A stretch of 11,486 nt of DNA, taken from contig RBNI01006309.1 of NCBI GenBank assembly GCA_003990745.1, forward strand, positions 1-11,486, given 5' to 3'. Below the pieces are notes generated by a model that was not told where the DNA came from, ran no database searches, and was given only the letters and a program-made list of their open reading frames with translations. Both the position numbers and the translations under genes were made by a program. Positions 62-11,486 of this stretch are shown here, one piece after another. Within the stretch, counting starts at the first letter, position 1. Every line of letters begins with the position of its first letter. This DNA comes from Jimgerdemannia flammicorona (taxonomy: Eukaryota; Mucoromycota; Endogonomycetes; Endogonales; Endogonaceae).

Positions 62-605
62 GGAGAACAAACCACTTTCGAAATCTTTGCACCACCTGAC
101 CCCAGAAATCTTTTCTTTAAACCCAATGAAGATATCCCACACCTGGGCATAGAAGGACACACATTCTCTGACAAAATGAACCCAGTACACTTCTAAGCAA
201 CCAACCAAAGTTGGAAAATCAACTTCTTGCTAAAAGGAACTATCATAGGACATCTGGTGCCTTTCCTCAGCCGAACTCATAGCAAAGTTTATGTACTAAA
301 CTTATTGAGAAATGGTAAAAGGTCCCAGGAGACAGTAAAGCCTTCCACTAACATTGGAGAAGAATTGACACCCCAACAACAGTAACAACTAGTAGAACTT
401 CTCAACAAATATCAAGATATCTTCACTACTGATTATGGCAACCTGCCATACAATCCATTATATCTCTACAGCATAAATACAAGAAATGCAACACCCATCC
501 AGCAGAAACTCTATAGAATCTCCCATCACTTAAAAATATTTGAAAAGGAGTATATTTAAGAACTCTTGGACAATAGAGTCATCTGACCCTCTACTAGCCC
601 AGTCC
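62..605 (+). pseudogene. Element A pol, protease-RT connector region (degraded)
   Basis: One frame (starting at 62) reads through about 180 codons interrupted by in-frame TAA and TGA stops. It gives a sensible run including VPFLSRTHSK, then LVELLNKYQDIF and PIQQKLYRI just ahead of the RT. In Ty3/Gypsy polyproteins the stretch before RT commonly has a 'L(L)..Y.DIF' helix followed by a proline-rich segment with 'PI.Q..YR', and this matches that layout. No protease active site is visible, so that part lies upstream or is lost. There is a frame change at about 605-620, where the reading moves to the frame used by the RT. Confidence 0.6.
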
Positions 606-1403
606 TATATTTATCATCTCAAAGAAAGGAGGATGGAGATTCTGTATAGATTACAGGAAACTCAATTCAGTCACCGAAAAGGATGCCTATCCTCTACCCA
701 GAATCAATGACCTTTTGGATCAGTTACAAGATATCAGATACTTCAGCAGTATAGACCTTTTTACAGGATTCCACAAGATCTCCATGGACCCCAAGAACAT
801 TCAAAAGACAACCTTTCTTGCTCTAGAAAAACTGTTTGAATACCTCTGAATGCTCTTTGGACTTTGCAATGCACCTCCCACCTTCCAGAGGATGATGAAT
901 TCAGTCTATGCCCCCTTGATCTACCACTGTCTGATTGTATACATGGACAATTCCAACATCTATTCAGCAAATTTCGAAGACACCTAAACCACCTAGAGGA
1001 ATTCTTCAAGCTTATCTGCATAAACCACTTGAGACTAATTACAATGAAATGCTACTTCAGGAAACAGAAACTTGAATTCCTTGGATTCATAATTTCAAAA
1101 GAAGGAACTCATGCAGACCTAAAGAAAAATGAGAAGATCAACAATTGGCCAGTACCCAAGACCCTGAAGGAAATACTATCATTCTTGATGCTAGTATCCT
1201 ATTACAGAAGGTTTATTAAGGACTTTACCCAAATCACTTCCCCAATCCAAGTCCTTCTCAAGAAAGGAGTACCTTATAAATAGACAAAATCACAAGAAAA
1301 AGCCTTCAAAGAACTGAAGGAATGTATGACCACAGCACTAATCCTTGTATGCCCCATTTTATAGAAACTATTCATCTTGTATACAGATGCTTCTAAAGAT
1401 AGA
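606..1403 (+). pseudogene. Element A reverse transcriptase and start of RNase H
   Basis: The RT would copy element RNA into cDNA inside the particle. In order the frame shows KKGGWRFCIDYRKLN, PLPRINDLLDQL, SSIDLFTGFHKI (first catalytic Asp kept), FGLCNAPPTFQRMM and the catalytic box VYMDNSNIYS at about 937-966. Here YMDD has become YMDN (940-951). A frameshift near 982 moves the reading into another frame, where LEFLGFIISKEG and SYYRRFIKDF (RT thumb/connection) are seen up to 1283. An in-frame TAG and further sequence lead to LYTDASKD at 1377-1400, the first RNase H motif. The sequence then stops resembling RNase H. Loss of the second Asp of YMDD, together with stops, means no activity. Confidence 0.88.
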
Positions 1404-2005
1404 CAACTCATGCAGAAAATGATGCTGATGTCATACTGACAGCACAGAAGACCTGGCTCTGAAACATCTATTACATAAATGAGATCAAGCAAGCCCTGAA
1501 GGACCAGCTCAATACAAAATGCCAAGGGATAAGTGAGGATCCAAACATATTCTACACCAGAATCTGATATCAGATAATCCTTGCAGATTATGCTGATGCT
1601 ATCTGAGATCAAGTAGCTGAAGCAACCTTTATGAAAGGAGTCCACCCAGAGATAGCTATGGCCATTCACTCATCACCAGTAGTTCTGGATCTGCCATAGA
1701 AGATTACCTATGCTCAGTGATATTGGATAGTCAGACACCCACAAGACCACACAATAGAAAGAGCCACTGGAGTTAGAATTGATGCATCTAAGGCAACCAG
1801 CATAATCCCTACCACAATGATAAATTGAAACACACCTCAGCCAAGAGCTAAAGAGGAGTAGAGAAACAGCAACTCTATGGAGGAGCTTTCTAAGCAGTTC
1901 GCCAAAATGACTGCCTACCTAGGAGATATAGTGAAGGAAATCAGAGAAAGAGACCACTGCCCAGTTCAGAAGTTCACTGCCACCACAGACAAGAAGAAAG
2001 GTACC

Positions 2006-2046
2006 TGCTAACATACAGAGAAGAAGGCCACTACTTTTATGAGTAT
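2006..2046 (+). other. Decayed CCHC zinc knuckle in gag
   Basis: A C-x2-C-x4-H-x4-C pattern can be traced: TGC at 2006-2008, then after a one-base loss TAC (Tyr, in place of Cys) followed by REEGH with His at 2029-2031, and TAT at 2044-2046 (Tyr in place of the last Cys). Knuckles of this type bind element RNA during packaging. Two of the three Cys have become Tyr by G-to-A changes (TGY to TAY), and the frame is shifted within the motif. The identification rests on spacing and on the position at the end of gag. Confidence 0.6.
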
Positions 2047-2480
2047 ATGAGTGAAACCAAGTACAAAGCTCAACCAAGCAATGCCATATAAAACAAGGAG
2101 CAGGCCAATACAATTATCTTCAAAGAAATTGGAGAGTCTGATGAAGAGGAATGGGAGACATTTCCTGCCCAGACCACCTAAAAAGATGTCTGCAAAGAAC
2201 TCTATAAGAGTCTGCCAGAAAGATCTAAGAAGAACCCAGCAGAAAAACAGACGGAAATACTATAGAGAGCTAAGCTGAAGAAATAGACCAAGATATGGAA
2301 CTGGAACAAGCAGTTCAAGATATCATCTGAGGAACCACTCCAGCCAGTGAGGGAGAAAAAGAAAAGAAGCTTCACAAGACCAAGACCTTCAAGTATGATA
2401 TTTTCAAGGACCTCAGCCAACAAAAGGTCAATGCAACCTTTGGTCAGCTTGCAGAAATCACAACATTCAGACAACAAATG

Positions 2481-2493
2481 AGGTTTGGACTTG
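2481..2493 (+). repeat. Target-site duplication, left copy, of LINE piece 1
   Basis: GAGGTTTGGACTT here matches GAGGTTGGGACTT at 2919-2931 with one mismatch in 13. The pair flanks a segment ending in A10, which is the signature of target-primed LINE insertion. Confidence 0.8.
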
Positions 2494-2918
2494 CTTGATG
2501 GGAATATTTGAGAACTAGATTAGTGGGAGGTATGGACAATGACTGGCTCACTATAGGGTGGGTTTTAGCTATATAGATAGGGCTGGCAGGATATTGACTC
2601 TTTGTTTTTGAGGAGGGGTGACAGATAGGTCTGCAAGAGAAGTTGTTAAGATGGGAGAGGTTGTTGGGAGATTTATTGATAGAGTGGTGAGTAGGTTGGG
2701 GATCCCAGGGGGGGTGCCATCACCATCTGGTAGAAGGCATCTGTGAACAGAGTGGTGGATGGGTAGTGATGGTTAATAACTTAGTGGTCTTTAATTATGA
2801 TAGCATGGATAGAGGGGGGCCCCCTAGGGGGATCAGTTAGGGGTGGGCTCAATGTATTTATACCAGATAGATAGGTGTAGTAATAAAAGATAGAGTCCAA
2901 GAGACAATAAAAAAAAAA
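2494..2918 (+). mobile_element. LINE (non-LTR) piece 1, 5' truncated, plus strand
   Basis: This 425 bp G-rich segment interrupts the gag-protease reading frame and ends in ten A residues at 2909-2918. It has no similarity to gag or pol. It aligns by eye, colinearly, with the 3' end of the larger LINE on the other strand: 2501-2524 with the complement of 3487-3510, and TTTGTTTTTGAGGA at 2601-2614 with the complement of 3396-3409. The spacing is nearly identical (114 versus 115 bp), and so is the distance to the A tail (about 295 versus 283 bp). It holds only the last part of the LINE coding region and its 3' UTR, so it is a dead-on-arrival copy. A G/C palindrome-like run lies near 2814-2833. 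Confidence 0.82.
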
Positions 2919-2931
2919 GAGGTTGGGACTT
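2919..2931 (+). repeat. Target-site duplication, right copy, of LINE piece 1
   Basis: GAGGTTGGGACTT immediately follows the A10 tail and pairs with 2481-2493 (12 of 13 identical). Reading across the empty site (…2493 then 2932…) keeps the element B frame open and in phase. Confidence 0.8.
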
Positions 2932-3097
2932 TTCAAAACAACCAAGAAATAAGGATGGAAGATAACTGAGGCCAACAATATTCAAGAGAACTCAGGAGAA
3001 GAAAGCAAAGACAACCACAAGACCTCTGTTTATGCAACCTGTCAAATTGAGGACAGAATCTTTAAAGCCATAATCAATACTAGAGCAAGAGGATGCC
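2932..3097 (+). pseudogene. Element B aspartic protease, N-terminal part with active site
   Basis: The frame reads FKTTKK, one stop, then SVYATCQIEDRIFKAIINTRARG. The retropepsin active-site box normally reads (I/L)-(I/V)-D-T-G-A. Here it is I-I-N-T-R-A at 3070-3087, so the catalytic Asp is Asn (AAT 3076-3078) and the Gly is Arg; both are G-to-A changes. The enzyme would cut the gag-pol polyprotein as a dimer during particle maturation. The larger LINE interrupts it three codons after the active site. The remainder resumes at 5041 in the same frame once the LINE and one target duplication are skipped. Confidence 0.8.
3083..3097 (+). repeat. Target-site duplication, left copy, of LINE piece 2
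   Basis: GAGCAAGAGGATGCC here is repeated without mismatch at 5026-5040 (16 bp if the following T is counted). It overlaps the codons just after the protease catalytic triplet. Confidence 0.95.
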
Positions 3098-3112
3098 TTT
3101 TTTTTTTTTTTT
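3098..3112 (-). repeat. Poly(A) tail of LINE piece 2 (T run on plus strand)
   Basis: Fifteen T residues lie directly against the left target duplication. On the minus strand they end the LINE. The sequence before the tail (AAGTAACTAT) corresponds in position to the end of LINE piece 1 before its own A run. Confidence 0.9.
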
Positions 3113-3565
3113 ATAGTTACTTAGACTCTACTATGTATTACTAGTCTATTAATAAGTTTACAGTATCATCTCCCACTACCTGATCTCCATAGGGGAGCCT
3201 CTCCTCATATCATGAATAAAGACCACCTTCTCACCTACTACTCCAACTCTCCCCCCACTCTGCCTACAGATTTTCTCTACCAAGTGACACCTTTGACTAC
3301 CCTACAACCCCCAACCAAGCCACCAGCCTGTCAAGGTGTCTTCTATAAGGCTATGCTAATATGACAGCTGGTCCCCCAAGCCCAGTCTCTTCCCATCCTC
3401 AAAAACAAATAACTAGTGACTGGCCAGCCCCACCCAAATTGCCAAAACCCAGCCTAAGATAAGCCACTCCTTTCCCACCCCCCCCACTAGTCTGTCTCTC
3501 AAATACTCCCACTGACTCTGTATGCTATCTTCCCTACACACTACCCCCAAACAATCCCCAATAGC

Positions 3566-3760
3566 TCACCAAAAGTCACTAAGTATCTCATACTCTCCAA
3601 GCCAATGTTCATGTGTCTGCACATATCTCCCTTTCTGCTCTACATCATGGCACTCTTCACAGTCAAAGCAATCTCCCTCGATAAGATGACCCAAGTGAAA
3701 GTTGAGCATTACATTCCTCCTCACCAGACCACTCAGCACTTCAGCAGCATCCACCTCCTC
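3566..3760 (-). pseudogene. LINE piece 2, possible Cys-containing C-terminal region
   Basis: On the minus strand an open stretch contains a C-x2-C-x2-C cluster (residues DCFDCEECHD) followed by a His about 17 residues later (THEHWL). Many LINE ORF2 proteins carry a zinc-binding Cys/His segment near the C terminus, and this lies in the right place, after the post-RT region and before the 3' UTR. The match is weak and could be accidental. The sequence to its left (3113-3565) is the last coding part plus the 3' UTR of the LINE, with no motif I recognise. Confidence 0.35.
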
Positions 3761-4169
3761 ACCTTAGCACTCCAGGTCCAAATGCCTTACCAGTTTCACT
3801 CTTCTCCAATACCCGCTCCCTGCTATCTACTAGGCCACAGATCCTGGCCTAGTCCCCTTTGACATTCAATCCCATCACTAATGTTGAACTCAATTAAGAG
3901 AATGCCTCCCAGCAATACTTGGTCATATCTCTATATTGCTGAGTCCCAAGCCACCTCTCCTTCATTTCCCTGTCAACAAATTTCAATATAGTGTACCCCC
4001 TCCACTACTCACCACCAGAAGCCTTTGTATCATAATTGTTCAGTGTTCTGAAGCCTAACCAATGATAGGAGATCTCCTGTTGAGCCTCTTGGTGAGGATC
4101 TCATATCTCCCAGACCTTCTGCAAAAGGGGGGCCCAACTACCTCCTCTTAACTCCACTGCTCTCTTCAA

Positions 4170-5019
4170 CTACCATGCTCTCAAGCAGTATAGCCTCTTC
4201 AGAAAGTCAACCAGCCTAAGTCCTCCTCTTGCCACTAGTAAGGATAAGACCTCCCAACTGATCTGACTTCTTCTTCTAGCCCAGATCCACCCCTTGGCCA
4301 GCTTCATTAATCTCTTCATCACCCAAGCTGGGAAGTCCAGATTATAAGCCAGATACCACAACTTCAGCAGCCAATAGATATTCAAAATTGAGACATGCCC
4401 TGCTAGAGGCAAGTGGTGACCCCCCCAACTCCACAGGGCCTCCCCCCAGTTTCCAACCCTCTGTTCTCACCAAAGTCTGGGTAGTACCAACTCATATACT
4501 GACAAATAAATACCCAAGTACCTCACTATCTCACCAGTAGGGATGATTGTTCCAATAATATCCCCTCCCACCAGGCCATTGCCTAATATCATTGTTTCAC
4601 ACTTATATTAATTGAGTTTAGCCCCAGAGTTCTCCTCATACCACTCCACTGTCTCCTTGAGCTCCTCAATATCAGCAATCAATCCCAGACTAACCACTAT
4701 GTTATCTGCAAAGGTCCCAACTTTCCACCCAATTCCAAAGAAGGAGAGCCCTACTATCTTCTGCCTGATTCTGTTCATTAGGGGTTTCAGGAAAAGAGCA
4801 TATAGAATGGGGGACAGTGGGTCTCCTGGGGCATACCCCTATCCAAGGGAAATGATACCCCTCTATATCTATTACATATGTATGAGTTCAGCCCTACTCC
4901 CTTCCAGTTGACTGATTATTACTGACTGGAACTGTTGTAGTACCCCAGTTCTATCCAATACTTTTGCCAGCCAGACTTGCCACACTCTGTCAAATGCCTT
5001 CTCCTGATTCTAGAAGACC
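4170..5019 (-). pseudogene. LINE piece 2 reverse transcriptase and post-RT region
   Basis: Reading leftwards from 5019 the frame shows EKAFDRVW (motif with the first catalytic Asp), then several stops, then APGDPLSPILYALFLKPLMN (the GxPQGDPLSP motif with Gln lost) and FADN at 4701-4712, where the family has F/Y-A-D-D. This is followed by an IADIEELKETVEWYEENSG helix and KLN, all typical of non-LTR RTs. Further on, 4170-4412 on the same strand shows the characteristic post-RT stretch with LLKLWYLAY, FPAWV, WIWARRR, ISWEVLSL and ARGGLRLVDF. In an active LINE this domain would prime cDNA synthesis at the nicked target. Loss of the second catalytic Asp and the stops make it inactive. The bases between about 4412 and 4610 are LINE coding sequence with possible indels. 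Confidence 0.88.
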
Positions 5020-5025
5020 AGTCAG

Positions 5026-5040
5026 GAGCAAGAGGATGCC
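5026..5040 (+). repeat. Target-site duplication, right copy, of LINE piece 2
   Basis: This is identical to 3083-3097. The protease reading frame resumes directly after it. Confidence 0.95.
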
Positions 5041-5483
5041 TCCTCAGCAAGAAAGCAGCAGACTACCTAGGTTGGGAAGTTTAAGAAGCAACCAAGTTGG
5101 TGTTCATTACAGCTGATGGTACAAGAGCCACACCTCTAGGAAAGATTTGAGATGTTCTCATCAAGTTTGGAGAAGCAACCATCTCAGTGGATATAATTGT
5201 AACTAATGCAACTAACTACAATATTCTCATCAGTAATCAATGACTTCATAAAGCCAGAGCAATAATCAATCTCAATGTGCTGAAGATACAGATCATCTAC
5301 TGAGATAAGATATGAATTCCCATCAATGTCAACAAAGAAGTCCTGCCCAATATAGAGGAACAAGAGAGTGAATAAGAGGAAGCTTATATGGTGACCACTC
5401 AGAAAAAGAAGAAGAAAGTTGGATGGATGAGTAAAGAAGAATGGTGCAAGAAGATTACAGAAGGATATGCACTATAAGGAGTC
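5041..5483 (+). pseudogene. Element B aspartic protease, C-terminal part
   Basis: The frame continues in phase from 3097 once the LINE and one duplication are ignored: LLSKKAADYLGWEV, then KLVFITADGTRATPLGKI, a VLIKFGEATISVDIIV strand and NYNILISNQ. This pattern (flap-like segment, then a hydrophobic strand before N-x-x-(I/L)-G) fits retropepsin-type proteases of Ty3/Gypsy elements, where the second motif usually reads I(I/L)G; here the Gly is Ser. Seven in-frame stops occur (TAA or TGA), the last just before 5484. The C terminus becomes lysine-rich (QKKKKKVGWMSKEEW) and leads without a frame change into the dUTPase segment. Confidence 0.75.
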
Positions 5484-6221
5484 TGCCCCCATGGGATCAA
5501 AATGTACTGTATAGAGCATATCAATGATTGCTATCAGTGTACTGGCAAAATCAAAGAGATTTACCATCAAAGAAGACAGAAGGCCCTTGAGAAACAGGCT
5601 AAAGAGGAAAAGAAGGAGGAGGAAGAAAACAAACCACCAGCCCTCCTGGAGGACAGTGATGATGAAGAAGAAATTAAGCTCAAAATTTGGAAGATCCATC
5701 CAGATGCAGTTCTACCAGAATATAAGTCAGAAAATATAACTAAAATAGACATCACTAGAGTAGAAGAAACTGTACTAGAGTTCCAGAGAACTACCTTGCT
5801 TACAACTGGTTTGGAAATGATCATACCAAAAGACCATATTGGAATCCTCAAGACAAGAAGCAGCCTGGCTAAAAGGGAAATTACTATTAAAGGAGGAGTC
5901 ATCAACTCAGACTACTCTGGAGAAATTCTACTCATTGCCAGGAATCACAATTCTACAATCTCATTCCCAATTAAGAAGAAGGACCAATTGGCACAGATGT
6001 TGATCTTTCTGATTCTACAACCAAAGATCATAGAAGTTAAGAAGCTGGAGGTAACGGAAAGAGAAAGGAAAGAATTTGGATCCACTGGAAGAGGAGTATT
6101 CATCAGTACTAAGATCACTGAACTAGAGCATAGGAAGGGGAAACCACAAACAAGCACAGCTATACCATCAGAAATGAATTCCTACTTAAGGAAGAACTCA
6201 AGAAATACTCTACAAATTTGA
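5484..6221 (+). pseudogene. dUTPase domain with charged N-terminal linker, inside element B pol
   Basis: A trimeric dUTPase converts dUTP to dUMP and keeps uracil out of new cDNA. The frame is open from 5484 to 6221. Numbering from the Met at 5502: residues 20-56 are a Lys/Glu-rich, probably disordered linker. The domain runs from about 85 to 200. Motif 1 is seen as TTGLEMIIP (101-109). Motif 2 is TRSSLA (118-123). Motif 3 is GGVINSDYSGEI (131-142). Motif 4 is KKDQLAQMLI (159-168). Motif 5 is EFGSTG (191-196). In the family motif 3 reads G-x-I-D-x-D-Y, so N135 (AAC, 5904-5906) replaces the catalytic Asp. It is in frame with the protease upstream, while the RT follows after a one-base frame change near 6200, so it is part of the polyprotein and not a host gene. 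It has no internal stop, unlike its neighbours. Confidence 0.88.
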
Positions 6222-7126
6222 GGATGTCCTTGCCACAGATTTCAAGGATATCAAAGAAAAGACCCCACACTACTATTATGAGGTAAATACTGAAGACACC
6301 AAACCAATTTCCCAGAATGCAAGACCTGTCCTGCCAGCCTATCAGGAATGGCTCAGAGAAGAAATCAAGCAGATGGAAGAAGCTGGTATCATCAAAGAAG
6401 CCAGTAGCCCCTGGTCTTTACCAGTTGTGCTAGCACCGAAAAAAGGCAGCAAGCCTGGAGAATTCGCCCCAAGACTCTGTGTTAACTATAGAAAGCTCAA
6501 TGTGGTTATCAAGAAGGACTGCCAACCACTGCCTCTCATCAATGACATCCTTATAACTCTGGGAGATGAAGCACAGTACTACAGTACCTTGAATCTATAC
6601 TGAGGATTCCACCAAATCAGACTCACAGAAGTGCCAAGTGAAAAGTCTGCCTTCATAACCCCAGATGCAATATATGTCTACCTGCAAAGTCATTCAGAAT
6701 GTGCAATGCACCAGCAAGTTTCTAGTGAATGATAAATGAAGTCTTCCACTATGACATAGAAAGATGGATGATGGTTTATGTTGATGACATAATCATCTAT
6801 AGCCATATACCAGAAGAATATCTGTAGCACATCTGGCAGATAATGGAAAGACTGAGGAAGGATAGCCTATACATCAAGGCCAAGAAGTGCAAGTTTGCAG
6901 AAATTGAGATCTCCTATCTTGGCCATATCATCAACCAAGACAGAACACATACTGACCCCCTCAAGATACAAGTAGTAGCAGCATACCCAAGACCCACTAT
7001 GGTTACTAAAGCTCAGGCCTTCATGGGACTCACCTCATATGACCAAAGATTTATAAGAGGATTCTCTAATATTGCAGGTCCAATTTATAAACTCAACAAG
7101 AAGAATACCAAGTTCCAATAAACTGG
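6207..7126 (+). pseudogene. Element B reverse transcriptase
   Basis: From about 6207 the frame gives a pre-RT helix (KFEDVLATDF), KPISQNARPVLPAYQEWL, EEAGIIKEASSPWSLPVVLA, RLCVNYRKLN, PLPLINDILITLGD and STLNLY-stop-GFHQIRL. A one-base loss near 6685 shifts the frame. FRMCNAPASF, two stops, and the catalytic box MVYVDDIIIYS (YVDD at 6777-6788) follow, then SYLGHIINQ and RFIRGFSNIAGPI in the thumb and connection. The second and third catalytic Asp (YVDD) are intact. The first, expected in the S-T-L-D-L motif, is Asn (6592-6594). With the stops and frameshift the protein cannot be made intact. Confidence 0.92.
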
Positions 7127-7572
7127 TAAACAGCAACAAGCATTTGACAAGCTCAAGATCAGACTGACCCAAGCACCCATCCTTAGAAGACCAGACTGGA
7201 CCCAAGAATTCATTCTTCAGACAGATGCAAGTACACAAGTACTAGGAGCAGTTCTAGCTCAAAAGAAGACAAAGTAGAGTATATCATTACATACCTCAGC
7301 CATGGAACCTAAGGAGCTAAAAAAGAATATGAATCATATAAGTTTGAGTACCTCACAGTCATTTGGGCTTTAGAAAAGTTCCACTACTACCTGGCCAGAA
7401 GACACTTTACTATCCAAATGGACCACTCAGCTCTTACCTAACTACTGGAACAGGACAACCTAAGGGAATCTATGGTAGATAGATCATAAAGTTGCAAGCC
7501 TATGATGTAATTATCATGTACTGCCCAGGAAGAACCAATGCCAATACAGATACCCTCTTATGGACACTCTGA
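7127..7572 (+). pseudogene. Element B RNase H
   Basis: RNase H would remove the RNA strand of the RNA-DNA hybrid. Motif 1 is LQTDASTQVLGAVLAQ with the catalytic Asp at 7224-7226. After a frame change near 7270 come ITYLSHGT (family LSR), KEYESYKFEYLTVIWALEKF with the conserved Glu region, and RHFTIQMDHSALT with Asp at 7421-7423. A further frame change near 7485 leads to LQAYDVIIMYCPGRTNANTDTL, the usual end of Ty3/Gypsy RNase H (normally PG..N..AD.LSR). A stop is at 7570. The stretch 7573-7739 is a spacer with no recognisable motif. Confidence 0.88.
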
Positions 7573-7739
7573 AGGTCTCTCAACCAACAAACCAATAATG
7601 AATAAGGAGCTCTACTATGGAATCATCACATATCTGGGACAGTGAAAGATGCCCCAATATCTGGAAGAATGGATACAAATAATTATCAACAGAACATAAA
7701 AACAATTCAAAACTGATGGAGAAACACTGAAGAAAGAAA

Positions 7740-8600
7740 AACTACTAGTTATACCAGAACACAAGAAGGAGCAAGCAATGAAATCAGTATATGAACTCAG
7801 TCATCTAGGAGGAATCAACACATATGATAAAGTAAGAAAAACAAAATGGTGGCCAGAAATAGAGGAAGATATCAGACAATTTGTCAAGATCTGTGACAAA
7901 TACCAGAAACAGAAACAAGACCAAAGAAATCAAGCCCCAGGATCAGCACACATAGAGCTAGTGCCATTTGCCCATGTTGTAATAGATGTAATTGGCCCTC
8001 TACCCTTGACCCTGACTGGCAATCAATACATCATCATCATTGCAGACCTCTTCACAAAATGGATAGAGGCAGGACCTCTCAAATAAGCCAATATACAGTC
8101 AATTGCTGATTTCTTTTACAAAGAAATCATCTGCCGATTCAAGACCCCAATGCAATTAACCACAGACAGAGGGACAGAATTTGTGAGCTAGTTCTTTGAG
8201 GTTCTCTACAAAAAGTATAACATCCAGCATAATTGAACTACAGCCTATTACCCTCAAGGAAATAGACAAGCAGAAAGGACCAATAAGACTCTCAAGAATA
8301 TTATGGCAAAGATCTGCAATAACTACAAAAACTGAGATCACTATCTGCCAATAGCATTATCTGCTCTCTGGGATATCTGATTACAAAGCACTCACTTTAT
8401 CCCTCAAGAAATGCTATTTGGAGAAGAAAGTTCTCAAGGAACTCTATTGTTCAATAGAGATGCTGTATGGAAACATGTGGATATAGATATATGGAAACTA
8501 TACCAAATCGGGAAGAAGGCTAAGGATTACATAATCAAGGCACAGATACTATAGCAGAATAATGCAGAAAAGATTCACAAGCCCCTGGAGATTATCAAGA
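7740..8600 (+). pseudogene. Element B integrase, zinc-binding and catalytic core
   Basis: Integrase would join the cDNA to the host chromosome. A single frame holds the whole domain. The N-terminal HHCC module is VYELSHLGG…CDKY, with Tyr at 7790-7792 where the first His is expected, His at 7802-7804, Cys at 7892-7894, and Tyr at 7901-7903 in place of the last Cys. WWPEIEEDI and KYQKQKQDQ lie in their usual places. The catalytic Asp lies in VVIDVIGPLP (7985-7987), the second Asp in TTDRGTEF (8165-8167), and Glu in GNRQAERTN (8273-8275). The 35 residues between the last two give a canonical D,D35E spacing. In-frame stops at 8084, 8189, 8234 and later break it. Three acidic residues are kept, but two of four zinc ligands are lost. 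Confidence 0.92.
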
Positions 8601-9283: not shown

Positions 9284-9535
9284 TATGATGGCTGATCGCA
9301 ATTAGTAACATGAAACAGGGGAATTAGACATATGATCATACTACCTGAATCTGATTCCCAGATAGAGTAGCCTTATAAATAGTAGTTATATTCTGCAAAG
9401 TATAGAAACTTTAAGATTTGCAAAGATTTAGAAGAAGTTAGAATATTTGTAATCAGCACAATTCTAGCAGATGTTAAAGGATTCAATACTTGTAAAATGA
9501 CTCATAACTTAGCCACCTTATAAGCTAGCAAAACG

Positions 9536-9544
9536 TATATAAAT
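9536..9544 (+). promoter_or_regulatory. TATA box in 3' LTR of element B
   Basis: TATATAAAT is a good match to a eukaryotic TATA box. In an intact element the matching copy in the 5' LTR would drive transcription. Confidence 0.5.
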
Positions 9545-9563
9545 AACCCAGCATCTTGGAGTG

Positions 9564-9569
9564 AATAAA
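9564..9569 (+). terminator. Polyadenylation signal in 3' LTR of element B
   Basis: AATAAA lies about 20 bp after the TATA box, so the signal would be close to or upstream of the transcription start. Such a compact arrangement lets the 3' LTR copy, not the 5' copy, be used for polyadenylation. Confidence 0.45.
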
Positions 9570-9717
9570 CCTCAGATGGAAATAGTTCAAAGTAAAGAGA
9601 AAGCAAAGAAACTAGTAAGCCTGTGGGCAGATACACTTCAAACTCATCCACCTCTGCAACCCTGAGAACTCTGTAAGAGTCAGAATAAGTCAAGTTTCAA
9701 GATACAGAAATCTGACA

Positions 9718-10603
9718 TACTTCAAAGGTTAAGTGTCCACTATATTAAAATATATATACCAAAGAGTATAGTAGTCTATATAGGTTATAAAAGACTATTT
9801 TAGTCAAAAGTGATACTATTCCCAAAGAGTAATAATGATGGCCAGAAGTTTCTTTTTATAGATAGTATAATGTATTTCTCAGGCTTTAATTTCTAGGATA
9901 GATAGGATACTGTAAGATCCTCTTTACTAAGTACAGCTCTATAGTAATGTTTGATATATCTATTGTCAATATGAAAGGCCTAATAGAGTCTGATAGTATA
10001 GAGGTCTTGATAATTAGCCTCTTGAGGTATTCTATAATGATTGTACAGGCAGAAGTCCATTCAGCCTTAATATTGACTCCTTTTTACACCAGACTAGTAA
10101 GTATAGTAGTAATTATAGAGTATTCTCAGATGAACCAGTACTAGTAATCTATGATTTTCAGGAAGTATTAAAGAAGCTTGAGGGTGGTTGAAATGAAAAT
10201 ATCTGGTAGACTGATATCTTTCTGAGGTCTACATTGATACTATTAGCTGATATACTATGTTTCAGATATTCTATTGAATTATGGTAGAACTTATATTTAC
10301 TTATCTTAGTATAGAGCTAGTATTCTCATAGTAAGATCAGTATCCTTTTAAGGTAGATATAATATAATTAAACTGTTTTACTATAGATCTAAATATCATC
10401 AATATATACTAAGATACATATATTAAACAATAGTCTAATGATGTTATTTGCAAGGTTCTGAAAGGTAGTAAAAGTATTAGTTAGGCTAAAAGACATGATA
10501 TGGAATTAGTAATATCCAAACTATATCTTAAAGGAAATTTCTCTATATCTTTCTCATTATTGAGAATCTAGTTATTGTATAATAGCAGTACTTCTTTGGG
10601 ATA
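9718..10603 (-). pseudogene. Element D: heavily degraded Ty3/Gypsy RT and RNase H fragment
   Basis: On the minus strand, reading from about 10603 leftwards, several frames together show a decayed start of DLRSAYYQL type, NEKDIEK, FHIMSFSLTN, TFTTFQNLANNII and the RT box LVYIDDI-stop-IYSK (YIDD intact at 10395-10406). NSIEYLKHSISANSINVD (family EYLGHIIS..GI..D) follows. Near 9960 comes an RNase H motif, FILTIDIS, with AVLSKEDL and KLKPEKY shortly after in another frame. These are Ty3/Gypsy signatures. Stops occur every few codons and several single-base indels are needed. The segment is visibly richer in A and T than elements A and B. It starts directly beside the LTR of B and ends at the Copia LTR. 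Confidence 0.82.
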
Positions 10604-10715
10604 TTGGGGGAAGAGCAGCTGTTTATTGGATAACATGTGATGTGAATTTATGCATACTGATTGATAACATCTCCTATGATGATATCTATATATATCAAGT
10701 TATCATATCTCAACA
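10604..10715 (-). repeat. 3' LTR of the Copia element (outer end estimated)
   Basis: On the minus strand the LTR begins TGTTGAGATATGATAAC at 10715, next to the polypurine tract; TGTTGAGATATG-type starts are common in Copia LTRs. It contains a CCAATAAACAG polyadenylation signal. The outer end is placed near 10604, where the sequence begins to read as element D RT. That makes the LTR only about 110 bp, short for the group, so it may be truncated. Confidence 0.6.
10622..10627 (-). terminator. Polyadenylation signal in Copia LTR
   Basis: AATAAA on the minus strand, within TCCAATAAACAG, near the end of the LTR. Confidence 0.45.
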
Positions 10716-10725
10716 CTCCCACTCA
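10716..10725 (-). promoter_or_regulatory. Polypurine tract of the Copia element
   Basis: GAGTGGGAG on the minus strand immediately precedes the LTR start TGTTGAGA, the usual arrangement for plus-strand priming in Copia elements. Confidence 0.65.
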
Positions 10726-10965
10726 GGGAGATATGTACTAAAAAAGAATACAAACTAGACAAAAAGAGCAGTGCAATACATGCAAAACTAGAACTGCAAT
10801 AACCTAAATCTAAGGAATTTTCATGGATTGAAAAGTGTTCTGAAATACCCATAATACCTACAGAAATGTAATGTATATAATCCACTTGTAGATGAGGGAT
10901 GCAATCAACATATGTCAATATCAATGTCAATACAGTATGAGGGACTTTTAACAGCTTGAAAAGTC

Positions 10966-11486
10966 TCATGACCTGTTCGTAAGACTCATTCCTTTGGTGC
11001 ATAGCTCAAACTTCGGTTTTGGAAGGACTTTCATAGGTGAATTGGCAATCATATACTCTATGGGAATGTATTCCAAGTGTATACTCCCACACTCTACACA
11101 TTCTTGAATGAAATGATAGAGTATATTAATGTACTTCGTTCTGCTGTTGTGTACTAGATTTTTGGCAATTACTATCATTGATTGGTTGTCTTGCCTGATC
11201 AGTGTAGAGTACTATTCCTGAGAGAAGCTGAGGTCTTTTAACAGCTCATGGAGCCCAACAGCCTCCTTTGTTGCCAATGACAACACCTGATACTCCACCT
11301 GGAATGATGAGGTTGCCACAGAACTCTGCTTGTGTGTTTTCCATAAAACAACAGACTCTTTGTCTTCATTTGTGCTGATGTGAAAGAGATACACAGTCAT
11401 AGACCAGCAATCATCCAAGTCTCTGGCCCAATTGGCATCACATATGCCAAATAGCTGGATGCCATTATTCTTACTCCTATTTTTTT
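10966..11486 (-). pseudogene. Copia RNase H, C-terminal end of pol (partial)
   Basis: A single minus-strand frame from the right edge reads GIQLFGICDANWARDLDD (family GY.DADWA.D.DDR), VVLWKTHKQSSVATSSFQVEYQ (family W.SKKQ..VA.SS.EAEY), LATKEAVGLHELL, a TAG at about 11209-11211, then RQDNQSMIVIAKN, HNSRTKYINILYHFI, HLEYIPIEYMIAN and KVLPKPKFELCTKGM before TGA at 10966-10968. These are the standard closing blocks of a Copia polyprotein. The DDR of the family reads DDC, and nearby Arg codons look changed to Cys and Trp, as expected from CGN to TGN. With one stop and no frameshift in 173 codons it is far better kept than the other elements. Confidence 0.9.

What the first reader, a model, noticed from the sequence alone, without database searches (positions are those of the whole stretch)
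5041..6800. dUTPase fused between protease and RT in a Ty3/Gypsy-type polyprotein
Seen in the sequence: the five dUTPase motifs lie in order (TRSSLA, GGVINSDYSGEI, KKDQLAQMLI, EFGSTG and a motif 1 remnant). They are in phase with the aspartic protease upstream and followed by RT with only a one-base shift. Known from the families: retroviral dUTPases sit in pro (betaretroviruses) or between RNase H and integrase (non-primate lentiviruses). A protease-dUTPase-RT order is not the standard Ty3/Gypsy plan. Inference: this lineage captured a dUTPase independently, perhaps to limit uracil in its cDNA. I cannot say whether this arrangement has already been reported for fungi.
Basis: partly seen in the sequence, partly recalled or inferred. 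Interest (0 to 1): 0.8.

Follow-up and report, generated by a model that had tools for sequence, protein, structure and literature searches.

The report
dUTPase domain in a fungal retrotransposon
A very common jumping element of a repeat-rich fungus carries, between its protease and its reverse transcriptase, an enzyme that keeps uracil out of DNA; this layout is already in print for fungi, the copy in this window is a broken fossil, and the less familiar part is a small zinc-finger-like piece that sits between protease and uracil enzyme whichever of the two comes first.

Summary
Real, but the headline is not new. Window 5478-6218 gives a clear trimeric-dUTPase match (PF00692, E 3.5e-20) and a dUTPase fold, between protease and RT of a Ty3/Gypsy element. 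This is the family's plan: 22 of 22 other family-A loci have PR-dUTPase in that order (21 show RT downstream; L012's contig ends), L022 has CCHC-PR-dUTPase-RT-RNase H in one open frame, and dUTPase codons are about as constrained as RT. These loci were found through the dUTPase, so copies without it could not appear. The window copy is dead: catalytic Asp is Asn in protease and dUTPase, an antisense LINE with a 16-bp target duplication splits the protease, and CpGs are decayed. The order is published for fungi (PosPlaTy3-5, Novikova 2010) and rotifers. RT places family A in one clade (100/99) with dUTPase-RT proteins P0005-P0009, so the capture is older than this genome. Three further dUTPase-bearing families (B, C, D) have dUTPase before PR. 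Less expected: a ~45-residue CxH...CxxC module lies between PR and dUTPase in A (PR-CH-dUT) and in C and D (dUT-CH-PR), in different RT clades, with no Pfam family above cut-off. Host: fungus, probably basidiomycete (recalled comparison).

The parts
1404..2494 (+). Gag remnant of the same element; start of gag and 5' LTR not found
   Evidence: tblastn of L033 gag ORF from its residue 73 on: 1406-2008 (76%), 2020-2259 (73%), 2259-2315 (84%); blastn 1404-2494 at 83-84% to L033, L034, L037, L028
2495..2914 (+). LINE 3'-end fragment (boundaries approximate; identity inferred), sense, A-run at its end, imperfect target duplication 2480-2492 / 2919-2931 (12 of 13)
   Evidence: alignment break against L033, L034, L037, L028; sequence at both ends; 2499-2618 is inverted to 3392-3511 in the other LINE
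2915..3098 (+). Protease, first part; active-site Asp read as Asn (INTRAR; L022 reads IDTGAG)
3083..3098 (.). 16-bp target-site duplication, left copy
3099..5025 (-). Antisense LINE inserted in the protease; T-run from 3099 on; an RT piece matches RVT_1 at E 6.5e-6, 26.4 bits, below the 29.6 cut-off (a similar frame, L043:5738-6103, reaches 44.9)
   Evidence: identity as LINE inferred from RT, poly-A and TSD
5026..5041 (.). 16-bp target-site duplication, right copy
5028..5330 (+). Protease, second part, same frame as the dUTPase, with stops
   Evidence: tblastn 76% to L010; Asp_protease_2 E 7.4e-4, 20.6 bits, below cut-off, stops as X
5418..5585 (+). Cys/His module (CPHGIKMYCIEHINDCYQC), putative CHCC zinc site; one in-frame stop at 5475-5477
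   Evidence: profile hit E 4.8e-20, tblastn
5664..6122 (+). dUTPase domain (PF00692 core 5712-6089)
   Evidence: fold
5904..5906 (+). Motif 3 catalytic residue, AAC = Asn instead of Asp
6367..6965 (+). Reverse transcriptase, in two frames
   Evidence: 6367-6687 frame 1, 6693-6965 frame 3
7113..7515 (+). RNase H, in three frames
7646..8404 (+). Integrase, 80% to L033; H2C2 domain E 2.1e-12
9300..9758 (+). LTR-like stretch: 9300-9750 also matches the stretch upstream of gag in L033, L034 and L037

Best explanation
The window holds an old, inactivated copy of a high-copy fungal Ty3/Gypsy family (family A) whose Pol reads NC(CCHC)-protease-[Cys/His module]-dUTPase-RT-RNase H-integrase. Shown: domain order, single open frame from CCHC to RNase H in a better-kept copy, constraint on the dUTPase codons, and death of this copy. 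Inferred from known dUTPase biology: the lineage's enzyme is made with the polyprotein, released or kept next to RT inside the particle, and turns dUTP into dUMP so that RT does not put uracil into the cDNA, which would be attacked by uracil repair before integration. More speculative: the CxH...CxxC module binds zinc and ties the dUTPase to the RNA or the reverse-transcription complex, as the nucleocapsid part may do in the NC-dUTPase fusion of betaretroviruses.
For: PF00692 above cut-off; AF2 pLDDT 83-95 over residues 71-180 of the frame, and Foldseek to 3lqw, 1smc and 4ooq at TMt 0.88-0.89, rmsd 1.6-1.7. PR-CH-dUT in 22 of 22 other family-A loci, RT downstream in 21, at 330-334 and 247-250 bp. 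One 1111-aa frame CCHC-PR-dUT-RT-RH in L022. Pooled pN/pS dUTPase 0.187, RT 0.191, PR 0.244, linker before the dUTPase 0.300; 60% subsamples 0.146-0.229, 0.166-0.215 and (linker) 0.232-0.354 (24 loci entered, 22 with the dUTPase); mean dN/dS 0.139 (23 copies, window's own included) against 0.162 for RT (21). P0005, P0007, P0008 and P0009 have CCHC-PR-dUT-RT-RH, P0006 dUT-RT-RH, and all five keep GGVID. Catalytic role of the motif 3 Asp and the NC-dUTPase fusion: PMC4531489 (passages).
Against: 6 of 22 copies carry Asn at the catalytic Asp, so many copies are dead at this site; all six read AAT after ATC where the 16 others read GAT, which fits CpG decay. Copies were ranked by similarity to the window's dUTPase, which favours copies with a conserved dUTPase. 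The dUTPase-RT linker is more constrained than the dUTPase (0.132). pN/pS pools decay after insertion with selection. No expression, activity or trimer data; the host's own dUTPase was not found, so host dUTP supply is unknown.
Confidence: 0.75

Rival explanations
1. The dUTPase domain is kept for a non-enzymatic role (structural part of the polyprotein, protein or RNA binding), catalysis being dispensable.
For: The dUTPase-related protein of bovine immunodeficiency virus is needed for replication without detectable activity (PMC4261571, abstract read); 6 of 22 copies and the window have Asn at the catalytic site.
Against: L022, A2 and P0005-P0009 keep the motif 3 Asp and motif 2 RS[SG] across deep divergence; the six losses sit at a CpG, and CpG loss is strong in the window copy.
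Confidence: 0.12
2. Recent capture: this fungus's element took up a dUTPase on its own.
For: B, C and D in the same genome have dUTPase at another place, so capture or transfer happened more than once or was followed by reshuffling. P0010/P0011 have it after integrase and P0072 in a Copia-like protein.
Against: RT of A groups with P0005-P0009 at 100/99, each with dUTPase before RT.
Confidence: 0.1
3. Chance or one-off insertion of a host dUTPase gene into this copy.
For: None found.
Against: 22 of 22 other loci share the order and spacing; the first look flagged 6135 candidate places for the window's protein and 5391 for PF00692, of which 150 each were scored.
Confidence: 0.01

Closest known systems
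PosPlaTy3-5 of Postia placenta, with Phanerochaete chrysosporium elements and Tmt1 of Tuber (Novikova et al. 2010, PMC2864245, passages; the two older papers are known to me only through its text)
   Same: Ty3/Gypsy, fungal, dUTPase between PR and RT (PosPlaTy3-5)
   Different: Sequences not compared (not held). The passages read mention no Cys/His module between PR and dUTPase. PosPlaTy3-3 has dUTPase at the Pol amino end, a place like that in families B, C and D here.
Bdelloid rotifer Juno, Vesta and TelKA elements (PMC5408684, passages) and giant planarian Gypsy elements (PMC6431247, passages)
   Same: dUTPase between PR and RT; Juno has an extra Zn knuckle after the dUTPase
   Different: Animal hosts; knuckle after, not before, the dUTPase. 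Sequences not compared.
Betaretroviral NC-dUTPase-PR (PMC4531489, passages)
   Same: Families B, C and D here have dUTPase between Gag and PR, and zinc-knuckle-like parts adjoin the dUTPase
   Different: Family A has PR first; different virus family. Sequences not compared in a tree.

Membership tests
Trimeric (all-beta) dUTPase, PF00692 | Profile match above curated cut-off | tested here: met
   72.5 bits against 22 in the window; 83.5-95.7 in L010, L013, L022
Trimeric (all-beta) dUTPase, PF00692 | Five motifs in order | tested here: met
   By eye in the 23 rows; some copies have single losses and the window's motif 1 is degraded; motif positions recalled
Trimeric (all-beta) dUTPase, PF00692 | Catalytic Asp of motif 3 | tested here: not met
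   Window: Asn. Lineage: Asp in 16 of 22 other copies, Asn in 6. So the window copy is a dead member of the fold family.
Trimeric (all-beta) dUTPase, PF00692 | Fold | tested here: met
   AF2 + Foldseek, 245 PDB matches at E <= 0.001; the 50 rows shown are dUTPase entries by title or by the names
Trimeric (all-beta) dUTPase, PF00692 | Homotrimer and dUTP hydrolysis | not testable with these tools
   needs protein
Ty3/Gypsy (Metaviridae) | Pol order PR-RT-RNase H-integrase | tested here: met
   window 2915-8404; L033 and L037
Ty3/Gypsy (Metaviridae) | Two LTRs, primer site, polypurine tract | tested here: inconclusive
   3' LTR-like stretch 9300-9758; no direct repeat in the window, so no 5' LTR seen; primer site and tract not tested
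Chromovirus (Ty3/Gypsy with chromodomain) | Chromodomain after integrase | tested here: inconclusive
   None in L033:5143-5901 and L037:6002-6733, but these frames may end early
Betaretrovirus-type NC-dUTPase-PR | dUTPase upstream of PR | tested here: not met
   Family A has PR upstream; B, C and D have dUTPase upstream

The most novel reading that the evidence does not exclude
An undescribed zinc-binding module (CxHG...CxxC, ~45 residues) is a standing partner of retroelement dUTPases: it sits between PR and dUTPase in Gypsy lineages of different RT clades although the two enzymes have swapped sides (PR-CH-dUT in A, dUT-CH-PR in C and D). It tethers the dUTPase to the template RNA, and module and enzyme have been exchanged between element lineages living in one genome.
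Probability: 0.3. Interest if true: 0.5.

Novelty: new member of a known kind. Interest (0 to 1): 0.32.

Why it matters
It extends a little-studied kind of retrotransposon with one genome that holds four dUTPase-bearing Gypsy families with two enzyme orders, so capture, swap and loss can be compared inside one host. If the Cys/His module does tether dUTPase to the template, it would link fungal elements to the NC-dUTPase fusion of betaretroviruses as repeated solutions to the same need: a dUTPase at the site of cDNA synthesis. The window copy itself is an inactive fossil.

Tried and rejected
One-off insertion: rejected. How often the dUTPase was captured: (28 rows; D not yet found, P0072 left out) a single clade of the transposon dUTPases A, B, C, P0005-P0011 is not rejected (p-AU 0.34), A+B alone 0.046, A+B+C 0.055. 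The Cys/His-bearing dUTPases as one clade: p-AU 0.021 with P0010 outside, but found as a branch at 93/90 when P0010 is left out. C+D 0.199 and B+C+D 0.065. 137-139 columns are too few to settle it. On RT, A+P0005-9+B+C as one clade is rejected (p-AU 0.0016). Known family for the Cys/His module: only matches below cut-off, zf-C5HC2 (18 of 22 bits) and Herpes_UL69 (13.9 of 25) on the A sequence, DUF1451 (17.9 of 26.1) on the D sequence, none on P0008's; no PDB match for the A sequence; the protein search on that region had 9 candidates, none at E <= 10. Host dUTPase: the 150 scored matches of yeast Dut1 are at 39-46% identity; the six cut out as loci (L044 to L049) are transposon copies of family D, some others lie at places listed, and none stood out as a host gene. 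rRNA and HSP70 look-ups did not complete. Rfam: no match in window, L041-L043. Retroviral dUTPases were not put in the tree; by score A is nearer to eukaryotic cellular chains (3so2 85.7, yeast 3f4f 65.6, human 2hqu 63.4 bits) than to FIV 1f7d (54.6), which is above E. coli 1dud (51.3) (the organisms of 3so2, 2hqu, 1f7d and 1dud are recalled). Rows left out of trees: most family-A copies throughout (near-identical; 15 of them, the window's included); P0072, P0003, P0004 and 8hrv from then on; P0002 and P0011 from then on; P0010. In one search, 26 proteins without a precomputed dUTPase were hand-picked from a longer list of RT stretches.

Full report
What is in the window. The reading frame 5478-6221 matches the Pfam dUTPase family at E 3.5e-20, 72.5 bits against a cut-off of 22.

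What is wrong with this copy. Comparison with other copies shows an element from 1404 to about 9758: Gag remnant 1404-2494, a short LINE fragment 2495-2914 with an imperfect duplication (12 of 13), the start of the protease 2915-3098, an antisense LINE 3099-5025 flanked by a perfect 16-bp target duplication, the rest of the protease from 5026, then Cys/His module, dUTPase, RT, RNase H, integrase and an LTR-like end. The protease active-site Asp reads Asn (INTRAR; L022 reads IDTGAG). The dUTPase motif 3 Asp, which coordinates the attacking water (PMC4531489, passages), reads Asn. RT and RNase H are in several frames. Of 47 CpGs of L010 in the aligned part, 34 are TG or CA in the window, which keeps 3 (24 of 36 to 34 of 47 over five copies compared); 363 of 443 differences to L010 are transitions. 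In 22 other copies, 16 have Asp and 6 Asn at motif 3; all six read AAT after ATC, a CpG change. So decay at this site recurs.

The family. A search of the own genome with the window's protein flagged 6135 places at first look and scored 150, at 71-80% identity apart from itself. Domain searches over the fetched loci give PR-Cys/His-dUTPase in 22 of 22 other family-A loci (L010-L022, L026-L029, L033-L037) and RT downstream in 21; in L012 the contig ends. Spacing is 330-334 bp from PR to dUTPase and 247-250 bp from dUTPase to RT. These loci came from dUTPase hits, so they cannot show copies that lack it. L022 has one frame of 1111 residues with CCHC, protease, dUTPase, RT and RNase H; L010 has 811 residues with protease, dUTPase and RT. 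A second version (A2, dUTPase 61% identical) in L024 is itself split by a family-B element.

Constraint. With 24 loci entered, some partial, pooled pN/pS is 0.187 for dUTPase (22 copies), 0.191 for RT, 0.244 for protease, 0.228 for the Cys/His module, 0.255-0.300 for the linkers around it, and 0.132 for the dUTPase-RT linker; 60% subsamples give 0.146-0.229 for dUTPase, 0.166-0.215 for RT and 0.232-0.354 for the linker before the dUTPase. Mean dN/dS is 0.139 for dUTPase (23 copies, the window's own included), 0.162 RT (21), 0.162 RNase H (18), 0.245 protease (21). The dUTPase is thus kept about as strictly as RT. Copies were ranked by dUTPase similarity, which biases towards this.

Other families in the same genome. 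B (12 loci with both domains: L001-L008, L024, L025, L038, L039; L032 has the dUTPase at a contig end) runs Gag-dUTPase-PR-RT with dUTPase and PR adjoining and no Cys/His module. C (L023, L030, L031, L040, L042) and D (L044-L049) run dUTPase-Cys/His-PR, with RT downstream where the locus reaches it (L030 and L045 stop at contig ends, L042 at the end of the stretch; in L031 a short RT piece lies in the expected place and a fuller one elsewhere). A gag zinc knuckle lies before the dUTPase in all three, by eye in B and D and at 19.8 bits against a cut-off of 20.8 in C. L041 holds a D-like dUTPase piece without detectable Cys/His module or PR, which speaks against a strict link. Two of three stretches of 10 kb taken from contigs C1-C3 hold a dUTPase piece (L041, L042).

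The Cys/His module. Six sequences (A, C, D, P0007, P0008, P0009) share four invariant residues, C-x-H and C-x2-C. A profile built from A, D, A2 and P0007-P0009 finds family C, which was not in it, in 5 of 5 loci at E 5.1e-16 to 7.2e-13, finds P0001 (a family-A-like fragment), and lists none of P0002-P0004 or P0010-P0084. P0005 and P0006 have a cysteine-rich variant by eye only; the profile gives P0005 E 1.4 and does not list P0006. Pfam has only matches below cut-off, two of them to zinc fingers. Zinc binding is inferred. The module lies between PR and dUTPase in both orders.

Relatives elsewhere. Of 80 proteins found with the linker-dUTPase-RT region (only the 7987 best candidates were scored), P0005, P0007, P0008 and P0009 have CCHC-PR-dUTPase-RT-RNase H and P0006 dUTPase-RT-RNase H; P0010 and P0011 have dUTPase after integrase, and P0072 has Pol_BBD-dUTPase-rve, a Copia-like order. 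Their organisms are not named. On RT (40 rows), A and P0005-P0009 are one clade (100/99); B and C lie elsewhere with P0083, whose precomputed domains include a chromodomain and no dUTPase, and joining them with A is rejected (p-AU 0.0016). D's RT is 55-61% identical to C's. dUTPase trees are too short to decide how often the enzyme was captured: A's lineage splits from B, C, D and cellular enzymes at 97/95 and B groups with cellular enzymes (97/89), but B does not group so and a single clade of the transposon dUTPases then held is not rejected.

Host. EF-1alpha exons of the same genome are 80-93% identical to yeast, and the last exon scores higher to yeast (1f60) and one further chain (5o8w), 330 bits each, than to the next chains, 317 and less; wording of the second exon (SGWHGDNMLEES) reminds me of basidiomycetes, which is recall, not a test. 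The parts of the genome that I saw are dominated by transposons.

Literature. PMC2864245 (passages): dUTPase at the amino end, carboxyl end or between PR and RT of Pol in Postia placenta elements; earlier reports from Phanerochaete and Tuber, acquired independently in its view. PMC2774666 (passages): betaretroviral dUTPase called similar to that of fungal chromoviruses. PMC5408684 (passages): dUTPase between PR and RT in rotifers. PMC6431247 (passages): planarians. PMC3248453 (find): no occurrence of dUTP. PMC11105155 (passage): dUTPase domains enriched in Entomophthora muscae. PMC1142308 and PMC4241990 (passages) added nothing on this. Seven search listings were seen; none showed me a Cys/His module next to a fungal transposon dUTPase, but Tmt1 and the Phanerochaete paper were not read and figures are not held, so I do not claim that it is unpublished.

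How it most likely works. Shown: order, frame, constraint, predicted fold, death of this copy. Inferred from known dUTPase biology: lowering dUTP at the site of reverse transcription keeps uracil out of the cDNA. Speculative: tethering by the Cys/His module, by analogy with the NC-dUTPase fusion of betaretroviruses.

Noticed in passing
window 5418-5585; L023 2467-2616; L045 461-631: CxHG...CxxC module between PR and dUTPase in families A, C and D although the two enzymes stand in opposite order; no Pfam family above cut-off.
   Followed up: yes
P0072: A Copia-like protein (Pol_BBD, rve) with a dUTPase between Pol_BBD and integrase core.
   Followed up: no
P0010, P0011: Gypsy proteins with dUTPase after integrase; P0010's dUTPase sits near family A's while its RT does not.
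   Followed up: partly
L024 207-8806: An A2 element whose protease is split by a family-B element.
   Followed up: partly
window 598-1118: Remnant of another Gypsy-like RT upstream of the element (RVT_1 E 5.8e-9 in 598-846; tblastn 601-1118).
   Followed up: no
window 10703-11484, minus strand: Frames that look like a Copia RNase H end (recalled motif); Pfam gave no hit. A further RT match at 10212-10535 minus.
   Followed up: no
window 5028-7500: Strong CpG loss in the window copy (3 CpG left in the part aligned to L010; 34 of 47 CpGs of L010 are TG or CA), which suggests cytosine methylation in this fungus.
   Followed up: partly
window 2495-2914 and 3099-5025: Two LINE-like insertions with inverted 3' ends in one Gypsy element, opposite orientations, one with a perfect and one with an imperfect target duplication.
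   Followed up: yes
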